From: Allobrachymonas sp.
Lineage (GTDB): Bacteria; Pseudomonadota; Gammaproteobacteria; Burkholderiales; Burkholderiaceae
Direction of reading: 5' to 3'
Assembly (NCBI GenBank): GCA_030529305.1
Contig: JAUMXD010000055.1
Span: 1 to 10,024 of the forward strand
DNA length: 10,024 nucleotides
Shown here in pieces: positions 1 to 6,183 of this stretch; within the stretch, counting starts at the first letter, position 1; each line of letters starts with the position of its first letter. A model generated the notes under the pieces. That model saw nothing but the letters and a program-made list of their open reading frames with translations, was not told the DNA's origin and did no database searches. The position numbers were made by a program, and so were the translations under genes.

Positions 1-212
1 TCGAGGCCAAGGGCCTGAAACAGATGAACGACACCGGCGCGCTGGAAAAAATCATTGACGAAGTGATTGCCGCCAACCCCGCCAATGTGGAGCAATACAA
101 GGCGGGTAAAGACAAAGCCTTCAACGCTCTGGTCGGCCAGGTGATGAAGGCCAGCAAAGGCAAGGCCAATCCCCAGCAAGTGAACGAATTGCTGAAAAAC
201 AAACTGGCCTGA
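1..212 (+). CDS. gatB: Asp-tRNA(Asn)/Glu-tRNA(Gln) amidotransferase subunit B, C-terminal end (partial)
   Basis: This is the 3' end of gatB; the reading frame is already open at the window edge, with the first full codon at 3. GatB is the kinase and tRNA-binding subunit of the cytoplasmic GatCAB complex, which converts misacylated Glu-tRNA(Gln) or Asp-tRNA(Asn) to the amidated form. The visible 70 residues form the helical, YqeY-like tail domain that contacts t[16 protein letters not shown], then an [20 protein letters not shown] stretch, then [17 protein letters not shown] just before the stop. That pattern and the ending are typical of GatB. The catalytic cradle domain lies outside the window. 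An intrinsic terminator follows 24 bases after the stop, so gatB is probably the last gene of its transcript. Confidence 0.93.
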
Positions 213-236
213 TCTTTCAACCACCATCTGCCCCAG

Positions 237-278
237 CCGGGTTGAGGTGTGCTTTATGCACACCTCGCCCGGTTTTTT
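237..278 (+). terminator. Rho-independent terminator after gatB
   Basis: A perfect 9-bp stem, GAGGTGTGC (244-252) with GCACACCTC (258-266), closes a 5-base loop. It is extended at its base by CCGGG (237-241) with CCCGG (268-272) across a small internal loop (TT against G). Six T residues follow directly at 273-278. This is a textbook intrinsic terminator for gatB, and it insulates the downstream operon from gatB transcription. Confidence 0.93.
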
Positions 279-279
279 G

Positions 280-668
280 TTGCCTAGCCACTTCTTTGAG
301 AGACTATGCGCCTGCCTTTTCAAGCTCAACGCGAGGCCGTTGAAGAAACGGAAGAAGCGAAAGACCAGCATGGCGGAAGAGCTAGGCAGCACAAATCGCA
401 CATTGCAGAGCCACGCCCCGCAAGAGCCATTGTTCAAACAGGCAAGCCGATTCGCAACGCTGCGCCTACGCGTACTCCGTCAAGTACTTGCAGCGCATCG
501 CAAGCAACTCACCAAGGCTACTCAAGCGCCTGCTCACTTGCCCCAGCCAATTGCCACAGATTGATTGCTTCAAGCCAAGCCTTGCCAAACAACATCTTCT
601 CGACAAGCGCTTTGACTCTGCGGATGAAACCATTCACGCGCACTCAGCACCCTTGGTATTGAAGCCAC
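280..668. other. Gene-free stretch between gatB and the ABC operon
   Basis: No credible gene is seen on either strand. The plus-strand open frames here are short and overlapping, start without a ribosome site, and give low-complexity basic peptides with no recognisable motif. The minus strand has no long open frame. Base composition is visibly less GC-rich than in the flanking genes. The 8-mer TGCCTAGC occurs at 281-288 and on the minus strand at 382-389, and again in the leader at 763-770. A 10-bp palindrome, CAAGTACTTG, lies at 481-490. The stretch may be a decayed gene or repeat-derived DNA; nothing decides this. Confidence 0.5.
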
Positions 669-698
669 TTCAAAACAAGAACAACTCGCATTTAGAAT
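669..698 (+). promoter_or_regulatory. Candidate sigma-70 promoter for the ABC operon
   Basis: TTCAAA (669-674, 4 of 6 matches to the -35 consensus) and TAGAAT (693-698, 5 of 6 to the -10 consensus) are separated by 18 bases. Transcription from here would start near 705 and give a leader of about 165 bases before orfA. A second -35-like hexamer, TTGACG, lies at 715-720 but has no good -10 partner. Confidence 0.3.
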
Positions 699-869: not shown

Positions 870-1421
870 ATGACTGCGTGCACCCTGATCCCCGTTGAGC
901 AATGGCTGGCTCCACAGATTGAGGTGTGTGATGCGGGTGATCGACTGAGCTTTCACATTCAAGACGCCTTGCGCTACCACGGCTACGATGCCGTGGGTGG
1001 CGTTGTGCTGGGTTTTCGCCTGCTGCAGCAAGCCATTGCCCAGCTGTCGTCGCAGTCACCGCCGCAACGGCGTGCGTTTGAGGTGCTGACGGCTTTTCCC
1101 GGCTTGGGCTTTCGCGATTGCATGGAGCTCATCACCCGCTGCGTGAGCGAAAACCGCTTCCGCCTGGATACCGATTTGCACAACCCCCAGGTGCAAGAAG
1201 GCGTACAAGGCCGCCTGCATTTCGAATTTGGCTATCACGGCCAGCGCATCGTGCTCACGCCTGTTGCCGGGGCCTTGTCGGCTGAATTCATCGCCTTGGG
1301 CCGTGCCAGCAAACAGCCGGGATTCACGCAGCAACAGCAACAGGCTTGGCGACAAGCCAAGTTTGCGCTGGCCAACACTTTGCTCGCCGAACAGGCCCAA
1401 GACGTGATTCGGGTGCTTTGA
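870..1421 (+). CDS. OrfA: uncharacterised 183-aa protein, paralogue of OrfB, FmdE-like hint
   Basis: I do not recognise a described function. The product is cytoplasmic, with no signal peptide or membrane segment. The reading frame stays open upstream to 702, but the ATG at 870 is preferred: the residues before it look like translated non-coding DNA, and the alignment with OrfB ends near here. No clear Shine-Dalgarno precedes it. Residues 26-131 align without gaps to OrfB 19-124. Shared landmarks are FPGLGFRDCMEL (76-87), ENR (94-96), G114, FE (118-119), Y122, GQ (124-125) and P131. The segment YHGYDAVGGVVLGFR (36-50) followed by DCMELITRC (83-91) recalls the FmdE domain pattern (HGHxCPG...LGYR, then DAVQxLTGC), but the second His and the Cys-Pro are absent, so this is tentative. 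It is the first gene of the transporter operon and its stop overlaps the permease start (TGATG). Confidence 0.8.
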   Translation: MTACTLIPVEQWLAPQIEVCDAGDRLSFHIQDALRYHGYDAVGGVVLGFRLLQQAIAQLSSQSPPQRRAFEVLTAFPGLGFRDCMELITRCVSENRFRLDTDLHNPQVQEGVQGRLHFEFGYHGQRIVLTPVAGALSAEFIALGRASKQPGFTQQQQQAWRQAKFALANTLLAEQAQDVIRVL

Positions 1422-2209
1422 TGCAAGGCACCGGCACTGGCCCACACAAGCTGCGCAAGGCTTTGCGCAGCGCCTTGCCTTTGCTGGGTTTGCTGGCTGT
1501 GTGGGAAGGCGTGGCGCGCAGCGCTTGGGTGTCCAGCTATCTGCTGCCTCGGCCGCTGACTGTTGCGGCAACGGGCCTGCAGTTGCTGCAAGAGGGGTGG
1601 TTGCTCAAACACACCCAGGCTTCTTTAACCCGCATTGCCATTGGCTTTGGCATCAGTTGCACAGCGGGGATTTTGCTGGCCGGGCTGGTAGCGCGCTTCA
1701 AACTGGCGGCCGAGCTTACCGCCGCCCCTTTGGCTTTGCTGCGCATGATTCCGCCATTGGCGCTCACGCCCTTGCTGATTCTGTGGCTGGGTATTGGCAA
1801 TGCCACGCAAATCAGCATCATCGTGCTGGCCTCGTTCTTTCCGGTTTTTTTGAATGCAGCCAGCGGCTTTCGCCACGTTACGCCCGAGATTGACGAACTG
1901 GCGCGCAGCTTGGCCCTGCCGCGCATGATGTATGTGAGCCACATTGCCCTGCCAGCCGCCGTGCCCGCCCTGGTAACGGGGCTGCGCCTGGGTTTTGGCT
2001 ACAGCTGGCGCGCCCTCATCGGCGCCGAACTGATCGCGGCCAGCAGCGGGCTGGGCTACCTCATTCTGGATGCGCAAGAGCTGCAACGCACCGATGTCGT
2101 CATCGTGGGCATTTTGGTGATCGGCCTGCTCGGCTGGGGCATGGATTGGCTGTTTCAACGCACAGTCAATGTTTTGCTGGGCCGCCGCTTTCCCGAGGTG
2201 GTGGCATGA
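1421..2209 (+). CDS. ABC transporter permease, NitT/TauT (SsuC/TauC-like) family
   Basis: This is the inner-membrane channel subunit of an importer for a small organic anion or similar solute; substrate unknown. It has 262 residues from the ATG at 1421, which overlaps the orfA stop as TGATG with GGGTG five bases upstream. This start gives the usual length. Several hydrophobic helices are visible: PLLGLLAVWEGVA near the N-terminus, an IAIGFGISCTAGILLAGLVA segment, LLRMIPPLALTPLLILWLGIG, QISIIVLASFFPVFLNAASG and a C-terminal VIVGILVIGLLGWGMDWLF. The cytoplasmic EAA loop that docks on the ATPase is EIDELARSLALPRMMYVSHIALP, followed by ALVTGLRLGFGYSWRALIGAEL, typical of the BPD_transp_1 fold in SsuC/TauC relatives. 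Translation of the next gene is coupled through an ATGA overlap. There are no desulfonation enzymes nearby, so a sulfonate substrate should not be assumed. Confidence 0.92.
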   Translation: MQGTGTGPHKLRKALRSALPLLGLLAVWEGVARSAWVSSYLLPRPLTVAATGLQLLQEGWLLKHTQASLTRIAIGFGISCTAGILLAGLVARFKLAAELTAAPLALLRMIPPLALTPLLILWLGIGNATQISIIVLASFFPVFLNAASGFRHVTPEIDELARSLALPRMMYVSHIALPAAVPALVTGLRLGFGYSWRALIGAELIAASSGLGYLILDAQELQRTDVVIVGILVIGLLGWGMDWLFQRTVNVLLGRRFPEVVA

Positions 2210-2985
2210 GCGATATGCGCCACACGGGCGAAGCCCCTTTTCCCGTTCTGCAAGAAGTGCGCTTTGGCTTTGGCCCGCGTCCGGTCTTGAATCACGCCAC
2301 GCTCACGCTCAAGCGCGGCAGCATCAACTGTTTGCTGGGGCCATCGGGCTGTGGCAAATCCACCTTGCTGCGGGTGGTGGCGGGCTTGTTGCAGCCTGAC
2401 TCTGGGCAAGTGCTCGTTTCGCCCACGCATTGCGCCACGGTGTTTCAAGACCCGCGTTTGCTGCCTTGGCTGACCGTGGCAGAAAACCTGGGGCTGGCCC
2501 TGGCCGGGCACGCACGCACGCAGCGATCTGCACGTATTCACCAGGCCCTGACGCAGGTGCAGCTTGCAGGCACGCAAGACCTGCTGCCCCGCGAGCTTTC
2601 TGGCGGCATGGCCCAGCGGGTGGGCATTGCCCGCGCCTTGCTGCGCGCGCCCCAGCTGCTGTTGATGGATGAGCCTTTTTCTGCGCTGGATGCCATCACG
2701 CGCCATGAACTGCAAACGGTTTTGCGCGAGCTTATGACTACGCAGCAAACCACCTGCCTGTTCATCACCCACGATATTCACGAAGCCACCCTGTTGGGCC
2801 AGCGCCTGTTCGTGATGCAAAACGGGCGCATCACCCAACAGTGGGATGCCCCCTGGAACGCCCCTGCCATCCAGCAGCAAATCGTGCAGGCGCTCAACCA
2901 AGCGGAGCAGTCATCCGCACCCAACACTCTTTCCGACCAAGCAAGCGTGCCAAAAGCCGCTTCTCTTTTTTCTTCCTTTTCTTGA
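2206..2985 (+). CDS. ABC transporter ATP-binding protein, NitT/TauT (SsuB/TauB-like) family
   Basis: This is the cytoplasmic ATPase that drives the adjacent permease; 259 residues. All nucleotide-binding motifs are intact: Walker A GPSGCGKST (45-53), Q-loop VFQDPRLLPWLTV (Q81), signature LSGGMAQR (131-138), Walker B LLLMDEP (151-157), and the switch histidine in FITHD (H189). The VFQDxRLLPWLTV stretch is characteristic of the SsuB/TauB/NrtD branch. The ATG at 2206 overlaps the permease stop (ATGA) and has GAGGTG five bases upstream; longer in-frame starts would overlap the permease deeply. The C-terminal 26 or so residues, from AEQSS to SLFSSFS, are a Ser/Ala-rich tail beyond the usual domain end. 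The stop lies 20 bases before the binding-protein gene. Confidence 0.93.
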   Translation: MSDMRHTGEAPFPVLQEVRFGFGPRPVLNHATLTLKRGSINCLLGPSGCGKSTLLRVVAGLLQPDSGQVLVSPTHCATVFQDPRLLPWLTVAENLGLALAGHARTQRSARIHQALTQVQLAGTQDLLPRELSGGMAQRVGIARALLRAPQLLLMDEPFSALDAITRHELQTVLRELMTTQQTTCLFITHDIHEATLLGQRLFVMQNGRITQQWDAPWNAPAIQQQIVQALNQAEQSSAPNTLSDQASVPKAASLFSSFS

Positions 2986-2994
2986 TCCACAACC

Positions 2995-3000
2995 AGGAGG
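2995..3000 (+). promoter_or_regulatory. Strong ribosome binding site of the substrate-binding protein gene
   Basis: AGGAGG sits five bases before the ATG at 3006. It fixes the start although the frame is open further upstream. It is the best Shine-Dalgarno in the operon, which fits the known need for more binding protein than membrane subunits in ABC importers. Confidence 0.85.
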
Positions 3001-3005
3001 TTTTC

Positions 3006-3962
3006 ATGAAACGTCGTTTTTTCCTCGCCCTGTGCCTGCTGTCTGCACTGGCCACGGGCAGCGCCCAGGCTCAGCCCAACAACGCCTTGCGCATCAGCTA
3101 CGTGCGCTCGCCCTTCAATCTGCAATTGATGGTAATGAAAGAAAAAGGCATTTTGCAAAAGCACCTTGCGCCGCTGGGCCTGCAAGCCCAGTGGCCTGAA
3201 ATCAACTCGGGCGCCAAGCAGGCACAGGCCTTGGCCAGCGGCGACCTGGATATGGGCGGCGTGATGAACACCACCTCCGTTCTGCTGGCAGAAGGCGAAG
3301 GCAACCCCGTGCGCATCGTGGCCGGCGTTTCGCGCCCGACCGATGTTTTTGCCATCGTGGCTGGTAAAAACGGTCCGCGCACCGTGGCCGGACTCAAAGG
3401 CAAAGCCATTGCCGGCCCCAAAGGCACCGTGCTGCATCAACTGCTGGTTGCCGCCCTGGCGCGCGAGGGCATCGGCATGCAGCAAGTCAACTTCTTGCAA
3501 ATGGATTTGCCCAAGGCATTTGCCGCGGTACAAAGCGGCCAGATTGATGCGGCCTTGCTGGCGGCCAACTTCGTGCTCAATGCGCAAAAAGACGGCTCGC
3601 ACGTTCTGACGCGCGCCACAGGCTTGGTCACCCCTATTCTGGTCATGACCGCAAGCGACAAATTCCTGCAAAAACACCCGGACCGGGTCAAAGCCGTTGT
3701 TGCCGCGCACGACGAAGCCTGGCAGTGGATTCAGGCCAATAAAGAAGATGCCATCGCCCTGGGCGCCAAGCTGCAAAACATCAGCGTGGACGAGGCCCGG
3801 CAGCTCTACAACTGGTCGCACTTCACCCAGCGCCTGAAGCCCAGCGACTTTCAAGCCATGGAAAAAGACGTGCAGTTCATGCTCGATAACGGCATGATGC
3901 GCAACCGCGTGGACGTGCGCAAAATCGTCGTCCCCAGCGCCCTGGAAGCCACCGCCAAATGA
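3006..3962 (+). CDS. ABC transporter periplasmic substrate-binding protein, NitT/TauT family
   Basis: This is the solute receptor of the importer; 318 residues. A Sec signal peptide is clear: basic MKRR, hydrophobic [12 protein letters not shown], then GSAQA|Q with likely cleavage after residue 22. There is no lipobox, so the protein is soluble and periplasmic. The mature part shows the SsuA/TauA/NMT1 type-2 periplasmic-binding pattern: [21 protein letters not shown] near its start, [16 protein letters not shown] for lobe 1, [21 protein letters not shown] for the inter-domain strand, and [19 protein letters not shown] for lobe 2. A C-terminal helical part follows ([19 protein letters not shown] ... 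[17 protein letters not shown]). Specificity cannot be read from this. The stop overlaps the orfB start (ATGA), so OrfB is likely made in coupling with it. Confidence 0.92.
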
Positions 3963-4513
3963 ACGAATTGAGCTCCCGGCACACGGTGCGAGTGGCCGAT
4001 CAAGATGGCGTCATCGACATCGGCCCGGAAGACTTCATCAAATACAGCACCCGCGCCAACGTCATCGCCGCCGCGCTCATGACGCGGGTGGCCCAACTGG
4101 GCTTTCGCCTGCTCTCGCCCGACGCGCCCGTCTGGCGGCGTGAACTGTACTGGCGCCTGGGCTTTCCCGGCCCCGGCCTGGTGGACTGCGTGGAGCTGCT
4201 CTCGCATGCCGTGCGCGAAAACCGCTGCCTGTGCCAGCCCGTCACCGATCACCCGCACGCGCCCTTCTCGCTCAATGGGCAGTTCGTCTTCGAGATCAGC
4301 TACCGCGGTCAAACCGTGCAAATCTGGCCCAGCCCGCAGGTTTTTGATGACGAGTTCAGGCAACAGGTCAGCACCTGGCAAGAAGCGCCAGACAGCGCCG
4401 ATCGCCAGGCCTTTCTGGCCTACAAGGCCCGCAAAGTGCAGCAGATCTTGGCCCTGCCCGAAGAAGAGCTGCTGCACGCCGTGATGTTGAAAACCAGCAC
4501 ATCGGCCGCCTGA
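3959..4513 (+). CDS. OrfB: uncharacterised 184-aa protein, diverged paralogue of OrfA
   Basis: Last gene of the operon; function not recognised. It is cytoplasmic by sequence, with no signal peptide or membrane helix. Residues 19-124 align without gaps to OrfA 26-131. Conserved points are DFIKY against DALRY, R43, [12 protein letters not shown] (69-80), VRENR (85-89), NG (106-107), FE (111-112), YRGQ (115-118) and P124. The conserved Asp-Cys (D76, C77) is the best candidate functional site. The HG pair of OrfA (37-38) is replaced here by ST (30-31), so only OrfA keeps the FmdE-like part. The C-terminal third is helical and charged ([24 protein letters not shown]). The ATG overlaps the binding-protein stop (ATGA), which fixes the start. 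An active OrfB with a regulatory OrfA, the reverse, or a heterodimer are all possible. Confidence 0.82.
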
Positions 4514-4874: not shown

Positions 4875-4940
4875 CAATAGAATCAAGCGGGCTTGGATCA
4901 TCCATTTCATCCGCTTCCATACGCAAAAGGAGAACGCCGC

Positions 4941-5276
4941 ATGAGTAACGAAAGCACAAAAACCGAAGTACAGAATCTGAAGCAATTGCTGCAATATCAG
5001 GAAAATGCCGTGGTCAGCAAAATGCTGGTCAAACGGCCAACCGGCAGCGTGACGCTTTTCGCATTTGATGGCAGCGAGGGCTTGAGCGAGCACACCGCCC
5101 CGTTTGACGCCTTGGTCATCGGCGTTGAAGGGCGAGCTGAAATTCCCATCGATGGCGTCAAGCATATTGTGGAAGAGGGCGATTCTTTATTAATGCCCGC
5201 CCATGTCCCGCATGCTGTTCATCCTTTGGGCAATTTCAAAATGCTCTTGGTCATGATTCGCAGCGAAGCCAAATAA
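4941..5276 (+). CDS. Small single-domain cupin protein
   Basis: A 111-residue cytoplasmic protein with one cupin beta-barrel (cupin_2 type). The ATG at 4941 has a good AAGGAGAA ribosome site at 4927-4934; the frame is open slightly upstream to 4893, but those residues are unlikely. Motif 1 is recognisable but reduced: GLSEHTAPFDALVIGVEGRAEI, with E50 and H51 the likely metal ligands and the second His replaced. Motif 2 is GDSLLMPAHVPHAV, with H91 the likely ligand. This short form is common in bacteria and usually has no assigned reaction; roles as a small metal-dependent enzyme or a ligand sensor are both possible. It is preceded by a gene-free stretch and is probably its own transcription unit, convergent with the next gene. 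Confidence 0.85.
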   Translation: MSNESTKTEVQNLKQLLQYQENAVVSKMLVKRPTGSVTLFAFDGSEGLSEHTAPFDALVIGVEGRAEIPIDGVKHIVEEGDSLLMPAHVPHAVHPLGNFKMLLVMIRSEAK

Positions 5277-5326
5277 CACGCTACTGAATAAATAACCTGT
5301 TGATGATTTCTAGATGCAGGGCTTGA

Positions 5327-5425
5327 TCATCCAGCGTAGGCGGCTTTGCGCATCGCCATCTTGGCCTCTGGCGCAAAGCCGCTATCCGCCATCACCTGAA
5401 CAATCAGTGCGTACAAGGGATTGCG
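5327..5425 (-). pseudogene. Possible 3' remnant of an unidentified minus-strand gene
   Basis: Reading the minus strand from 5425 to a TGA at 5329-5327 gives 32 codons that look protein-like, ending in ADSGFAPEAKMAMRKAAYAG. A stop codon (TAG at 5428-5426) lies directly upstream in the same frame, and it does not continue the preceding minus-strand gene. It could be a decayed C-terminus, or a small peptide from the internal ATG (20 residues). The inverted repeat at 5340-5382 falls inside it, which may equally explain the codon-like look. I do not recognise the family. Confidence 0.18.
5340..5382. terminator. 12-bp perfect inverted repeat between convergent genes
   Basis: GCGGCTTTGCGC (5340-5351) and GCGCAAAGCCGC (5371-5382) are exact reverse complements separated by 19 bases. 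The site lies between the 3' ends of the cupin gene (plus) and the YpfH-like gene (minus), where a shared terminator would be expected. There is no T-tract on either side, so a bidirectional, possibly factor-assisted, stop or an mRNA-end hairpin is the most that can be claimed. Confidence 0.45.
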
Positions 5426-5433
5426 CTACCTAC

Positions 5434-6183
5434 TCAATGCAATACGGATGGCTCGTCGTCTTTCGACTGCACTACGCTATCTAATGCACCAGCGCTGGCC
5501 AGCGCTTCACGCCACAGGCGGCGGGGCACATGGTTTTGCAGCAGGTGCAAAATGCGCTGTTGCAGTTCGGGCGCGCACGTCGCAGCAGCCTGGCTTTCCA
5601 GCACATCCAGCGTAAAGTCCACATCCAGCGCTTGCAGGCGTTGCCCCCATTCACGCGCCTGCTCGGCAGAGGTAGTGACCCTATCACGAGCATGCAGCCA
5701 GTGCAGGCAGGTGTGTTCGGCAATGGGTGAGGCTTGCTTGGGCAGCTGCCCGCCCACGGCAAACAGGCGGGCGCAAATATCCTCGTGCTGCATCACGGCC
5801 TGCATGGCCAAACTGGCCGCTGTGCCCTGCGCGATGATGGCCGTGCGCGCAAAATCGAGCCCCGCACGGGCCTGCCACTGTTGCACCAGCTGGCGCAAAG
5901 ATGCCACGGTAGCGGGTTGATGGGACGCGCTTGGCGCAGCAATCTCCGCAGGCCCAGCCAGCACCACCACGGCCCCTTGCGCAAAGTGCTGGGTCAAGCT
6001 GTGGGCCAGGGCCTTCCAGTCATCAGCCAAGGTAGGCTCGCTTGGCAGCAGCAAAAACAGTTGCTGTGGCTCTGTCGGCCAAGCTGCGATCTGGGGGCCA
6101 GCGGCATCTGGCTGAGTGGCTTCGTCGAACGATGCTGCAGACGTTTGCTGCTTGGCGGATGGAGAGGAAGGGTCTTGTGTCAT
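5434..6183 (-). CDS. YpfH-like alpha/beta-hydrolase, apparently inactive (pseudoenzyme)
   Basis: It resembles the YpfH/phospholipase-carboxylesterase family of serine hydrolases. The match is clearest over the C-terminal half: RTAIIAQGTAASLAMQA, LHARDRVTTSAEQA, DVDFTLDVLES and the family-type ending VPRRLWREALASAG. Compared with E. coli YpfH as I remember it, the nucleophile elbow GFSQG reads AQGTA (Ser to Gly, about residue 120), the catalytic His in LGHAI reads QAAAT, and the oxyanion HG after the first strand is missing. Only the Asp of HARDRV (about 167) survives. The frame is fully open, so it is not a plain pseudogene. The start is uncertain: ATG 6183 (249 residues, GGA eight bases upstream) is preferred to ATG 6207 or TTG 6258, which lack ribosome sites. 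The first 30 residues are polar and Ser/Ala/Gln-rich. It is presumed cytoplasmic. Confidence 0.72.
   Translation of the reverse strand: MTQDPSSPSAKQQTSAASFDEATQPDAAGPQIAAWPTEPQQLFLLLPSEPTLADDWKALAHSLTQHFAQGAVVVLAGPAEIAAPSASHQPATVASLRQLVQQWQARAGLDFARTAIIAQGTAASLAMQAVMQHEDICARLFAVGGQLPKQASPIAEHTCLHWLHARDRVTTSAEQAREWGQRLQALDVDFTLDVLESQAAATCAPELQQRILHLLQNHVPRRLWREALASAGALDSVVQSKDDEPSVLH

What the first reader, a model, noticed from the sequence alone, without database searches (positions are those of the whole stretch)
870..4513. A NitT/TauT-type ABC importer bracketed by two paralogous proteins of unknown function
OrfA and OrfB, the first and last genes of the operon, align without gaps over about 105 residues and share FPGxGxxDCxEL, ENR and FE..Y.GQ. 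Three of four gene junctions are stop/start overlaps, and the ATPase-to-binding-protein gap is 20 bases. This suggests one functional unit in which a duplicated small cytoplasmic protein serves the transporter. I know of no described system with this layout, but I cannot search. A heterodimeric enzyme or carrier acting on the imported compound is an inference.
Basis: partly seen in the sequence, partly recalled or inferred. Interest (0 to 1): 0.75.

Follow-up and report, generated by a model that had tools for sequence, protein, structure and literature searches.

The report
Nutrient importer with two FmdE-like partners
A rare, mobile bacterial gene set couples a small-molecule importer to two related proteins that share the fold of FmdE, a protein of unexplained function often found beside metal importers, and because the set also occurs on E. 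coli plasmids its job can be tested in the laboratory.

The parts
870..1421 (+). OrfA: FmdE-fold protein, lineage that keeps the first His (183 aa)
978..1001 (+). OrfA HGYDAVGG, counterpart of the FmdE HGHxCPG metal motif; only the first His kept (H37)
   Evidence: alignment of 59 family members
1095..1127 (+). OrfA FPGLGFRDCME, counterpart of the FmdE TDMCGVDAIQ segment; the Cys ligand is lost by alignment, the Asp kept (D83)
1421..2209 (+). Permease of a NitT/TauT (TauC/SsuC-like) ABC importer
   Evidence: PF00528 E 1.4e-22; best NCBIfam match SsuC 142.7 bits, under its cut-off of 347
2206..2985 (+). ATPase of the importer
   Evidence: PF00005 E 5.7e-33
2995..3000 (+). AGGAGG, probable ribosome-binding site of the binding protein gene
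   Evidence: read from the sequence
3006..3962 (+). Periplasmic binding protein, SsuA family (TIGR01728); both sulfonate side-chain ligands replaced by Val (V33, V142)
   Evidence: with PMC3839906 and PMC6906117 passages
3959..4513 (+). OrfB: FmdE-fold protein, lineage without the first His (184 aa)
4163..4195 (+). Orf[12 protein letters not shown], the same conserved segment as in OrfA
669..698 (+). Weak promoter-like site upstream of OrfA (9 of 12 matches)
   Evidence: a consensus match only

Best explanation
This is a five-gene, horizontally moving importer operon. A binding protein of the SsuA/TauA class picks up a small compound in the periplasm, the permease and ATPase bring it in, and OrfA and OrfB, two anciently diverged FmdE-fold proteins, receive or process it in the cytosol, most likely as a mixed dimer whose cleft is built from both chains as in FmdE dimers. 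The compound is probably not an ordinary alkanesulfonate; the company the family keeps (iron-complex-type and Nik-type importers, a nickel-hydrogenase maturation operon) makes a metal complex or metal-related cofactor the leading guess. Shown by computation: operon, its conservation, the predicted fold, loss of the FmdE metal ligands and of the sulfonate side chains by alignment, separate ancestry of OrfA and OrfB. Inferred: the mixed dimer, the cytosolic acceptor role, the cargo.
For: Fold. Sequence bridge to FmdE: importer-linked relative L059 matches PF02663 over 8-132 of 133 (E 7.9e-4, 19.9 bits, cut-off 22.9), the relative in the hyp operon likewise (E 0.0028, 18.2 bits), and the profile of four FecBCD-linked proteins meets an FmdE profile with prob 91.7. 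Coupling to import: 12 of 12 compared loci with both genes keep the order on one strand; of 18 genomes drawn by the binding protein alone, 4 hold both partners, 1 a single one, 13 none, so the two come and go together there. Of 14 loci of further FmdE-like relatives examined (L034, L058-L062, L075, L076, L107-L110, L116, L117), 2 lie after a NitT/TauT importer, 8 after an iron-complex-type importer (4 of these are one mobile cluster), 1 in a Nik/Dpp-type cluster, 1 after an ABC ATPase (rest unread), 1 between hypE and hypB beside a NicO permease, 1 with no importer. Canonical FmdE forms dimers with clefts built from both subunits and most of its genes adjoin metal transporters (PMC2954224, sections 3.2, 3.3, 3.7). 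Sulfonate side chains Gln36/Ser141 (SsuA), Gln30/Thr132 (TauA) align with V33 and V142, conserved in all or all but one of 25.
Against: OrfA and OrfB score nothing against PF02663 and their profiles alone meet FmdE only weakly (prob 2.4 and 11.1); the link rests on fold and on intermediates. The metal ligands are lost, which weakens a metal role. OrfA-like genes live without OrfB and with no importer near; 0 of 6 such genomes (two named Vibrio, four unnamed) hold the binding protein, so a mixed dimer is not obligatory for the OrfA lineage. The importer occurs without the pair in 11 regions. The hyp-operon case is one genome of 78 in its class. No dimer was modelled, and no riboswitch or constant companion enzyme marks the substrate.
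Confidence: 0.5

Rival explanations
1. OrfA and OrfB form an enzyme that chemically converts an imported organic compound.
For: Invariant polar residues in each family (A: D83, E86, D100, K148, K164; B: D14, D16, D76, C77, E79, R86, R89, K156); the cleft of FmdE 2gvi held an unidentified ligand near a cysteine (PMC2954224, section 3.3).
Against: No catalytic activity of an FmdE-fold protein appears in the sections read; the cysteine near that ligand is lost by alignment; no metabolic enzyme genes accompany the operon consistently in the loci read.
Confidence: 0.2
2. An ordinary sulfonate/taurine importer with two passenger proteins; annotation as SsuA family is right.
For: Binding protein over the TIGR01728 cut-off; best PDB matches are SsuA and TauA.
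Against: Both sulfonate side-chain ligands are replaced by conserved Val; no ssuD, ssuE or tauD gene was recognised among the window's ORFs (by reading); the pair comes and goes as a unit.
Confidence: 0.12
3. OrfA and OrfB are sensors or brakes that bind the cargo and then gate the ATPase or expression, not carriers.
For: Small ligand-cleft proteins co-transcribed with a transporter; the importer can do without them.
Against: The chains of 183-184 aa are filled by the FmdE-type core, with no further domain matched; the solo form has no such importer to regulate in 6 of 6 genomes searched.
Confidence: 0.13

Closest known systems
FmdE family (PF02663; structures 2GLZ, 2GVI, 3D00)
   Same: Fold over nearly the whole chain, the Asp58 position, in OrfA also His15 and Gly21; gene next to an importer
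   Different: Below the Pfam cut-off; HxHxC + C metal site lost except H37 in OrfA; two different copies; NitT/TauT importer; no zinc finger
FecBCD-type 'iron' importers followed by FmdE or an FmdE-like protein
   Same: Importer operon that includes an FmdE-fold gene after the ATPase
   Different: Unrelated importer class; one FmdE-like copy, in some clusters with two unassigned proteins or the phnGHIJKL genes
Four-gene NitT/TauT operon with a single FmdE-like protein (L034, L058 Azospirillum)
   Same: Same importer subfamily (binding protein 49% identical), FmdE-like gene after the binding protein, in one clade with OrfB
   Different: No OrfA; not met in the paper searches made here
SsuABC / TauABC
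   Same: Importer class and binding-protein family
   Different: Sulfonate side chains lost; no desulfonation enzymes recognised beside it; extra OrfA and OrfB
SAO selenoprotein ABC system (SaoXPA...)
   Same: NitT/TauT-like permease and binding protein with accessory proteins; a review passage links such selenoproteins to heavy metals (PMC13188914)
   Different: Scores far under the Sao cut-offs (SaoP 141 of 295; SaoX 34 of 300); other accessory proteins

Membership tests
FmdE (PF02663) | Sequence score over the Pfam gathering cut-off (22.9 bits) | tested here: not met
   No hit for OrfA or OrfB at E 1; 0 of 33 members of the OrfA alignment match it; relatives L059 19.9 and L117 18.2 bits, just under
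FmdE (PF02663) | FmdE alpha+beta fold | tested here: met
FmdE (PF02663) | Metal site His15, His17, Cys19, Cys55 | tested here: not met
   OrfA keeps H15 only, OrfB none; H15 in 12 of 12 A, 0 of 11 B, 0 of 11 single; a zinc-less natural FmdE with two ligands replaced exists (3D00, PMC2954224)
FmdE (PF02663) | Stable dimer | not testable with these tools
FmdE (PF02663) | Gene beside a transporter | tested here: met
   literature PMC2954224
SsuA / aliphatic sulfonate binding protein | TIGR01728 score over cut-off | tested here: met
   172.5 against 163.5 bits
SsuA / aliphatic sulfonate binding protein | Gln and Ser/Thr side chains that hold the sulfonate | tested here: not met
   V33 and V142, conserved in at least 24 of 25; mapped by pairwise alignment
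SsuABC operon | Desulfonating enzymes SsuD/SsuE beside it | tested here: inconclusive
   None recognised by reading the window's ORFs; no family scan was made of the flanking ORFs
SAO system | Sao model scores over cut-off | tested here: not met
   SaoP 141.4 of 295, SaoA 149.4 of 360, SaoX 34.1 of 300

The most novel reading that the evidence does not exclude
OrfA/OrfB define a class of import-coupled unloading factors: FmdE-fold proteins that dock to unrelated ABC importers and take metal complexes (perhaps nickel) or cofactor precursors off the pump, with OrfA carrying the working site and OrfB a degenerate partner. If so, this would explain what FmdE proteins in general do beside metal importers.
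Probability: 0.22. Interest if true: 0.82.

Novelty: new variant of a known kind. Interest (0 to 1): 0.52.

Why it matters
FmdE-fold proteins have had solved structures since 2006-2010, and the paper on them (PMC2954224, sections read) could only list possible functions. This operon ties a metal-site-depleted branch of them to a defined importer, shows that such proteins stand beside at least three unrelated importer classes, and places a complete copy on plasmids of Escherichia coli, where gene removal and uptake assays are routine. It also shows that a subfamily filed as sulfonate-binding lacks side chains that hold sulfonates, so its automatic annotation is probably wrong.

Tried and rejected
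Pfam and NCBIfam scans of OrfA and OrfB gave nothing useful (a PRK15124 hit of OrfB at E 0.029, 14.3 of 184 bits, is taken as chance). PDB sequence search with OrfA and its profile gave nothing credible. hhalign of OrfA or OrfB profiles alone against FmdE was weak (2.4 and 11.1%), so the FmdE link rests on fold and intermediates. Rfam at gathering threshold found no riboswitch in 13 sources, only tRNAs, a rimP leader and an AgrB antisense RNA. Tandem duplication was considered and rejected by the tree and AU test; the AU group was chosen after seeing the tree, so its p is optimistic. The split between the FecBCD-linked clade and the rest has only 94/75 support, so whether all NitT/TauT-linked partners form one clade is open. 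A sulfonate importer was considered and made unlikely, but that mapping rests on pairwise HMMER alignments with gaps nearby. Paper searches on FmdE showed PMC2954224 as the one directly relevant paper; the listings were capped (20 of 101, 10 of 992), and the four papers, which hold FmdE, nickel and ABC transporter, were seen as listings only and not read. So 'not in print' means not met in those searches of one open-access library. G052's weak hit (E 8e-4 over 62 residues) was dropped as probable chance. Protein search 84 scored only 7,996 candidates, so its 90 hits are a lower bound.

Papers: PMC2954224 abstract, introduction, sections 3.2, 3.3, 3.6, 3.7 and one stretch of methods and 3.1 read; PMC6906117, PMC3839906 and PMC13188914 passages only.

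Full report
What is there. The importer parts are clear: permease PF00528, ATPase PF00005, binding protein TIGR01728 over cut-off. OrfA and OrfB have no Pfam or NCBIfam assignment at cut-off. They are homologous beyond doubt.

How the pair arose. A tree of 57 proteins rooted on FmdE puts OrfB (one clade, 100/100) together with single FmdE-like proteins (joint clade 100/100). Two of the 11 singles could be seen in context, in L034 and on an Azospirillum plasmid (L058), and both follow permease-ATPase-binding protein of the same subfamily. OrfA forms another clade with solo proteins, most of them named Vibrio or Vibrio kin (100/99). Holding OrfA, solo and OrfB together without the singles is rejected (p 0.0127; the group was chosen after seeing the tree). 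The pair is therefore old and was assembled or kept as two lineages; it is not a recent duplication in this operon.

How constant the unit is. One scan of one genome per species with the OrfA profile gave 12 loci: 7 complete five-gene operons (L004-L006, L008-L010, L015), one cut by a contig end after OrfA-permease-part of the ATPase (L007), and 4 OrfA-like genes in Vibrio with no importer match in the stretch fetched (L011-L014). Three further five-gene loci came from the order of a Desulfovibrio genome (L035-L037; the binding-protein gene of L036 is interrupted) and one from an E. coli plasmid (L057). With the window that makes 12 compared loci with both genes, all in the same order and on one strand; the window and L004 are close kin. 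Pairwise distances of the five proteins correlate (r 0.86-0.94, rank correlation 0.52-0.79 over 66 pairs); one near-identical pair drives part of the r, and no species-tree control was run. The importer does not need the pair: 18 of 297 genomes of that order hold a close binding protein (E up to 1e-60), of which 4 hold both OrfA and OrfB, 1 a single form and 13 no match to the OrfB profile. Twelve regions were fetched (11 of those 13 genomes, plus a second copy in G599, which also has a five-gene locus): 11 show permease-ATPase-binding protein without OrfA or OrfB, one shows the binding protein alone. On the binding-protein tree of 25 (11 with the pair, 12 without, 2 single; partly chosen through OrfA searches) the pair label needs at least 5 changes, 2 of them forced by well-supported branches; long branches make some placements unsure. 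Conversely 0 of 6 genomes with an OrfA-like gene and no operon seen (two named Vibrio, four unnamed) hold the binding protein at E 1e-10, while a control Vibrio with the operon does.

Distribution. Rare and patchy: 1 of 9 genomes of the nearest genus, G001 itself; 4 of 398 genomes of its phylum match the single-type profile (G001, a Vibrio-like solo, a FecBCD-type and the hyp-operon case); 5 of 345 in the order of Budvicia (Budvicia with five genes and four OrfA-like matches, of which the two read in context are solo); 5 of 5,426 complete E. coli genomes, all on plasmids. It crosses phyla (Pseudomonadota, Thermodesulfobacteriota). This is the pattern of horizontal transfer (inference).

What it carries. 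The binding protein is filed as SsuA family, but the Gln and Ser/Thr side chains that hold the sulfonate in SsuA and TauA (PMC3839906, PMC6906117, passages) align with V33 and V142, conserved in all or all but one of 25 members. The three layouts (with the pair, with a single, without) share these residues and 48.6-62.7% identity to the window's protein, the near-copy L004 apart, so they may well carry the same thing. No riboswitch and no constant companion enzyme names it. The family's company is the best clue: PMC2954224 says most PF02663 genes adjoin metal transporters, and in three of six FmdE regions fetched here canonical FmdE follows a binding protein-permease-ATPase set (my reading, the other three were not resolved). 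FmdE-like relatives follow importers annotated 'iron ABC transporter' (L059-L062, L075, L107, L108; L116 by my reading), lie in a Nik/Dpp-type cluster (L110), and in one genome sit between hypE and hypB with a NicO-type permease next door (L117; HypB, D, E, F over their NCBIfam cut-offs, NicO just over the Pfam cut-off). One relative (L109) has no importer beside it but a heavy-metal P-type ATPase nearby.

Mechanism. The most economical model: the importer delivers its cargo to a cytosolic pair of FmdE-fold proteins whose shared cleft takes it over. Shown are the operon, the predicted fold, the losses and the co-occurrence. The mixed dimer, the hand-over and a metal-linked cargo are inferred. 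My odds: about 0.95 for the fold, 0.85 for one functional unit where all five genes occur, 0.5 for the acceptor model, about 0.3 for a metal-linked cargo.

Verdict. Confirmed observation, partly right interpretation, new variant of a known kind (importer plus FmdE-fold partner). Interest 0.52: a specialist would not expect two diverged FmdE-fold proteins at both ends of a taurine-type importer, and the E. coli plasmid copies make the open question of FmdE function directly testable.

Noticed in passing
L061, L062, L107, L108: Plasmid-borne cluster: LysR regulator, iron-type ABC importer, FmdE-like protein and C-P lyase genes phnG, phnH, phnI, phnJ and two ATPases, in Klebsiella, Rhizobium and Labrenzia; in Morganella (L062) seen up to phnG at the record end; hits in Martelella and Proteus were only listed. 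No phnCDE importer genes appear in the feature tables shown.
   Followed up: partly
window 901-4500 against L004: Mosaic operon: 96-100% identical DNA per 100 bases at 3201-4400 (binding protein into OrfB), but 67-93% at 901-3200, as after recombination; window 90-301 also matches the left edge of L004, while right-flank pieces from 5492 on lie on another contig of G001.
   Followed up: partly
P0123-P0136, e.g. Ottowia massiliensis: Mostly 101-105 aa (two longer) OrfB look-alikes that match only part of OrfB; the four aligned share its first part and end in an unrelated tail: probable gene remnants.
   Followed up: no
L008 5325-9833: In Leminorella the operon follows genes that read like a DMSO-reductase-type molybdoenzyme set (my reading of the ORFs; not scanned).
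   Followed up: no
L059 6689-7944, L060 6602-7912, L075 4774-6005, L076 4788-6010, L110 4783-5987: Two unassigned proteins (fused in Rhizobium L060) precede the FmdE-like gene in several importer clusters; no Pfam hit for the L059 and L060 proteins scanned (L110 by position only).
   Followed up: no
L036 about 10350-10355: The binding-protein gene appears interrupted in the five-gene locus of G599, while a second, pair-less importer copy in that genome (L074) has an open binding-protein frame.
   Followed up: no
window 4893-5276: A small cupin-like gene right of the operon (my reading); window 4950-5491 had no match in the nearest held genome, where the rest of the right flank is found.
   Followed up: no
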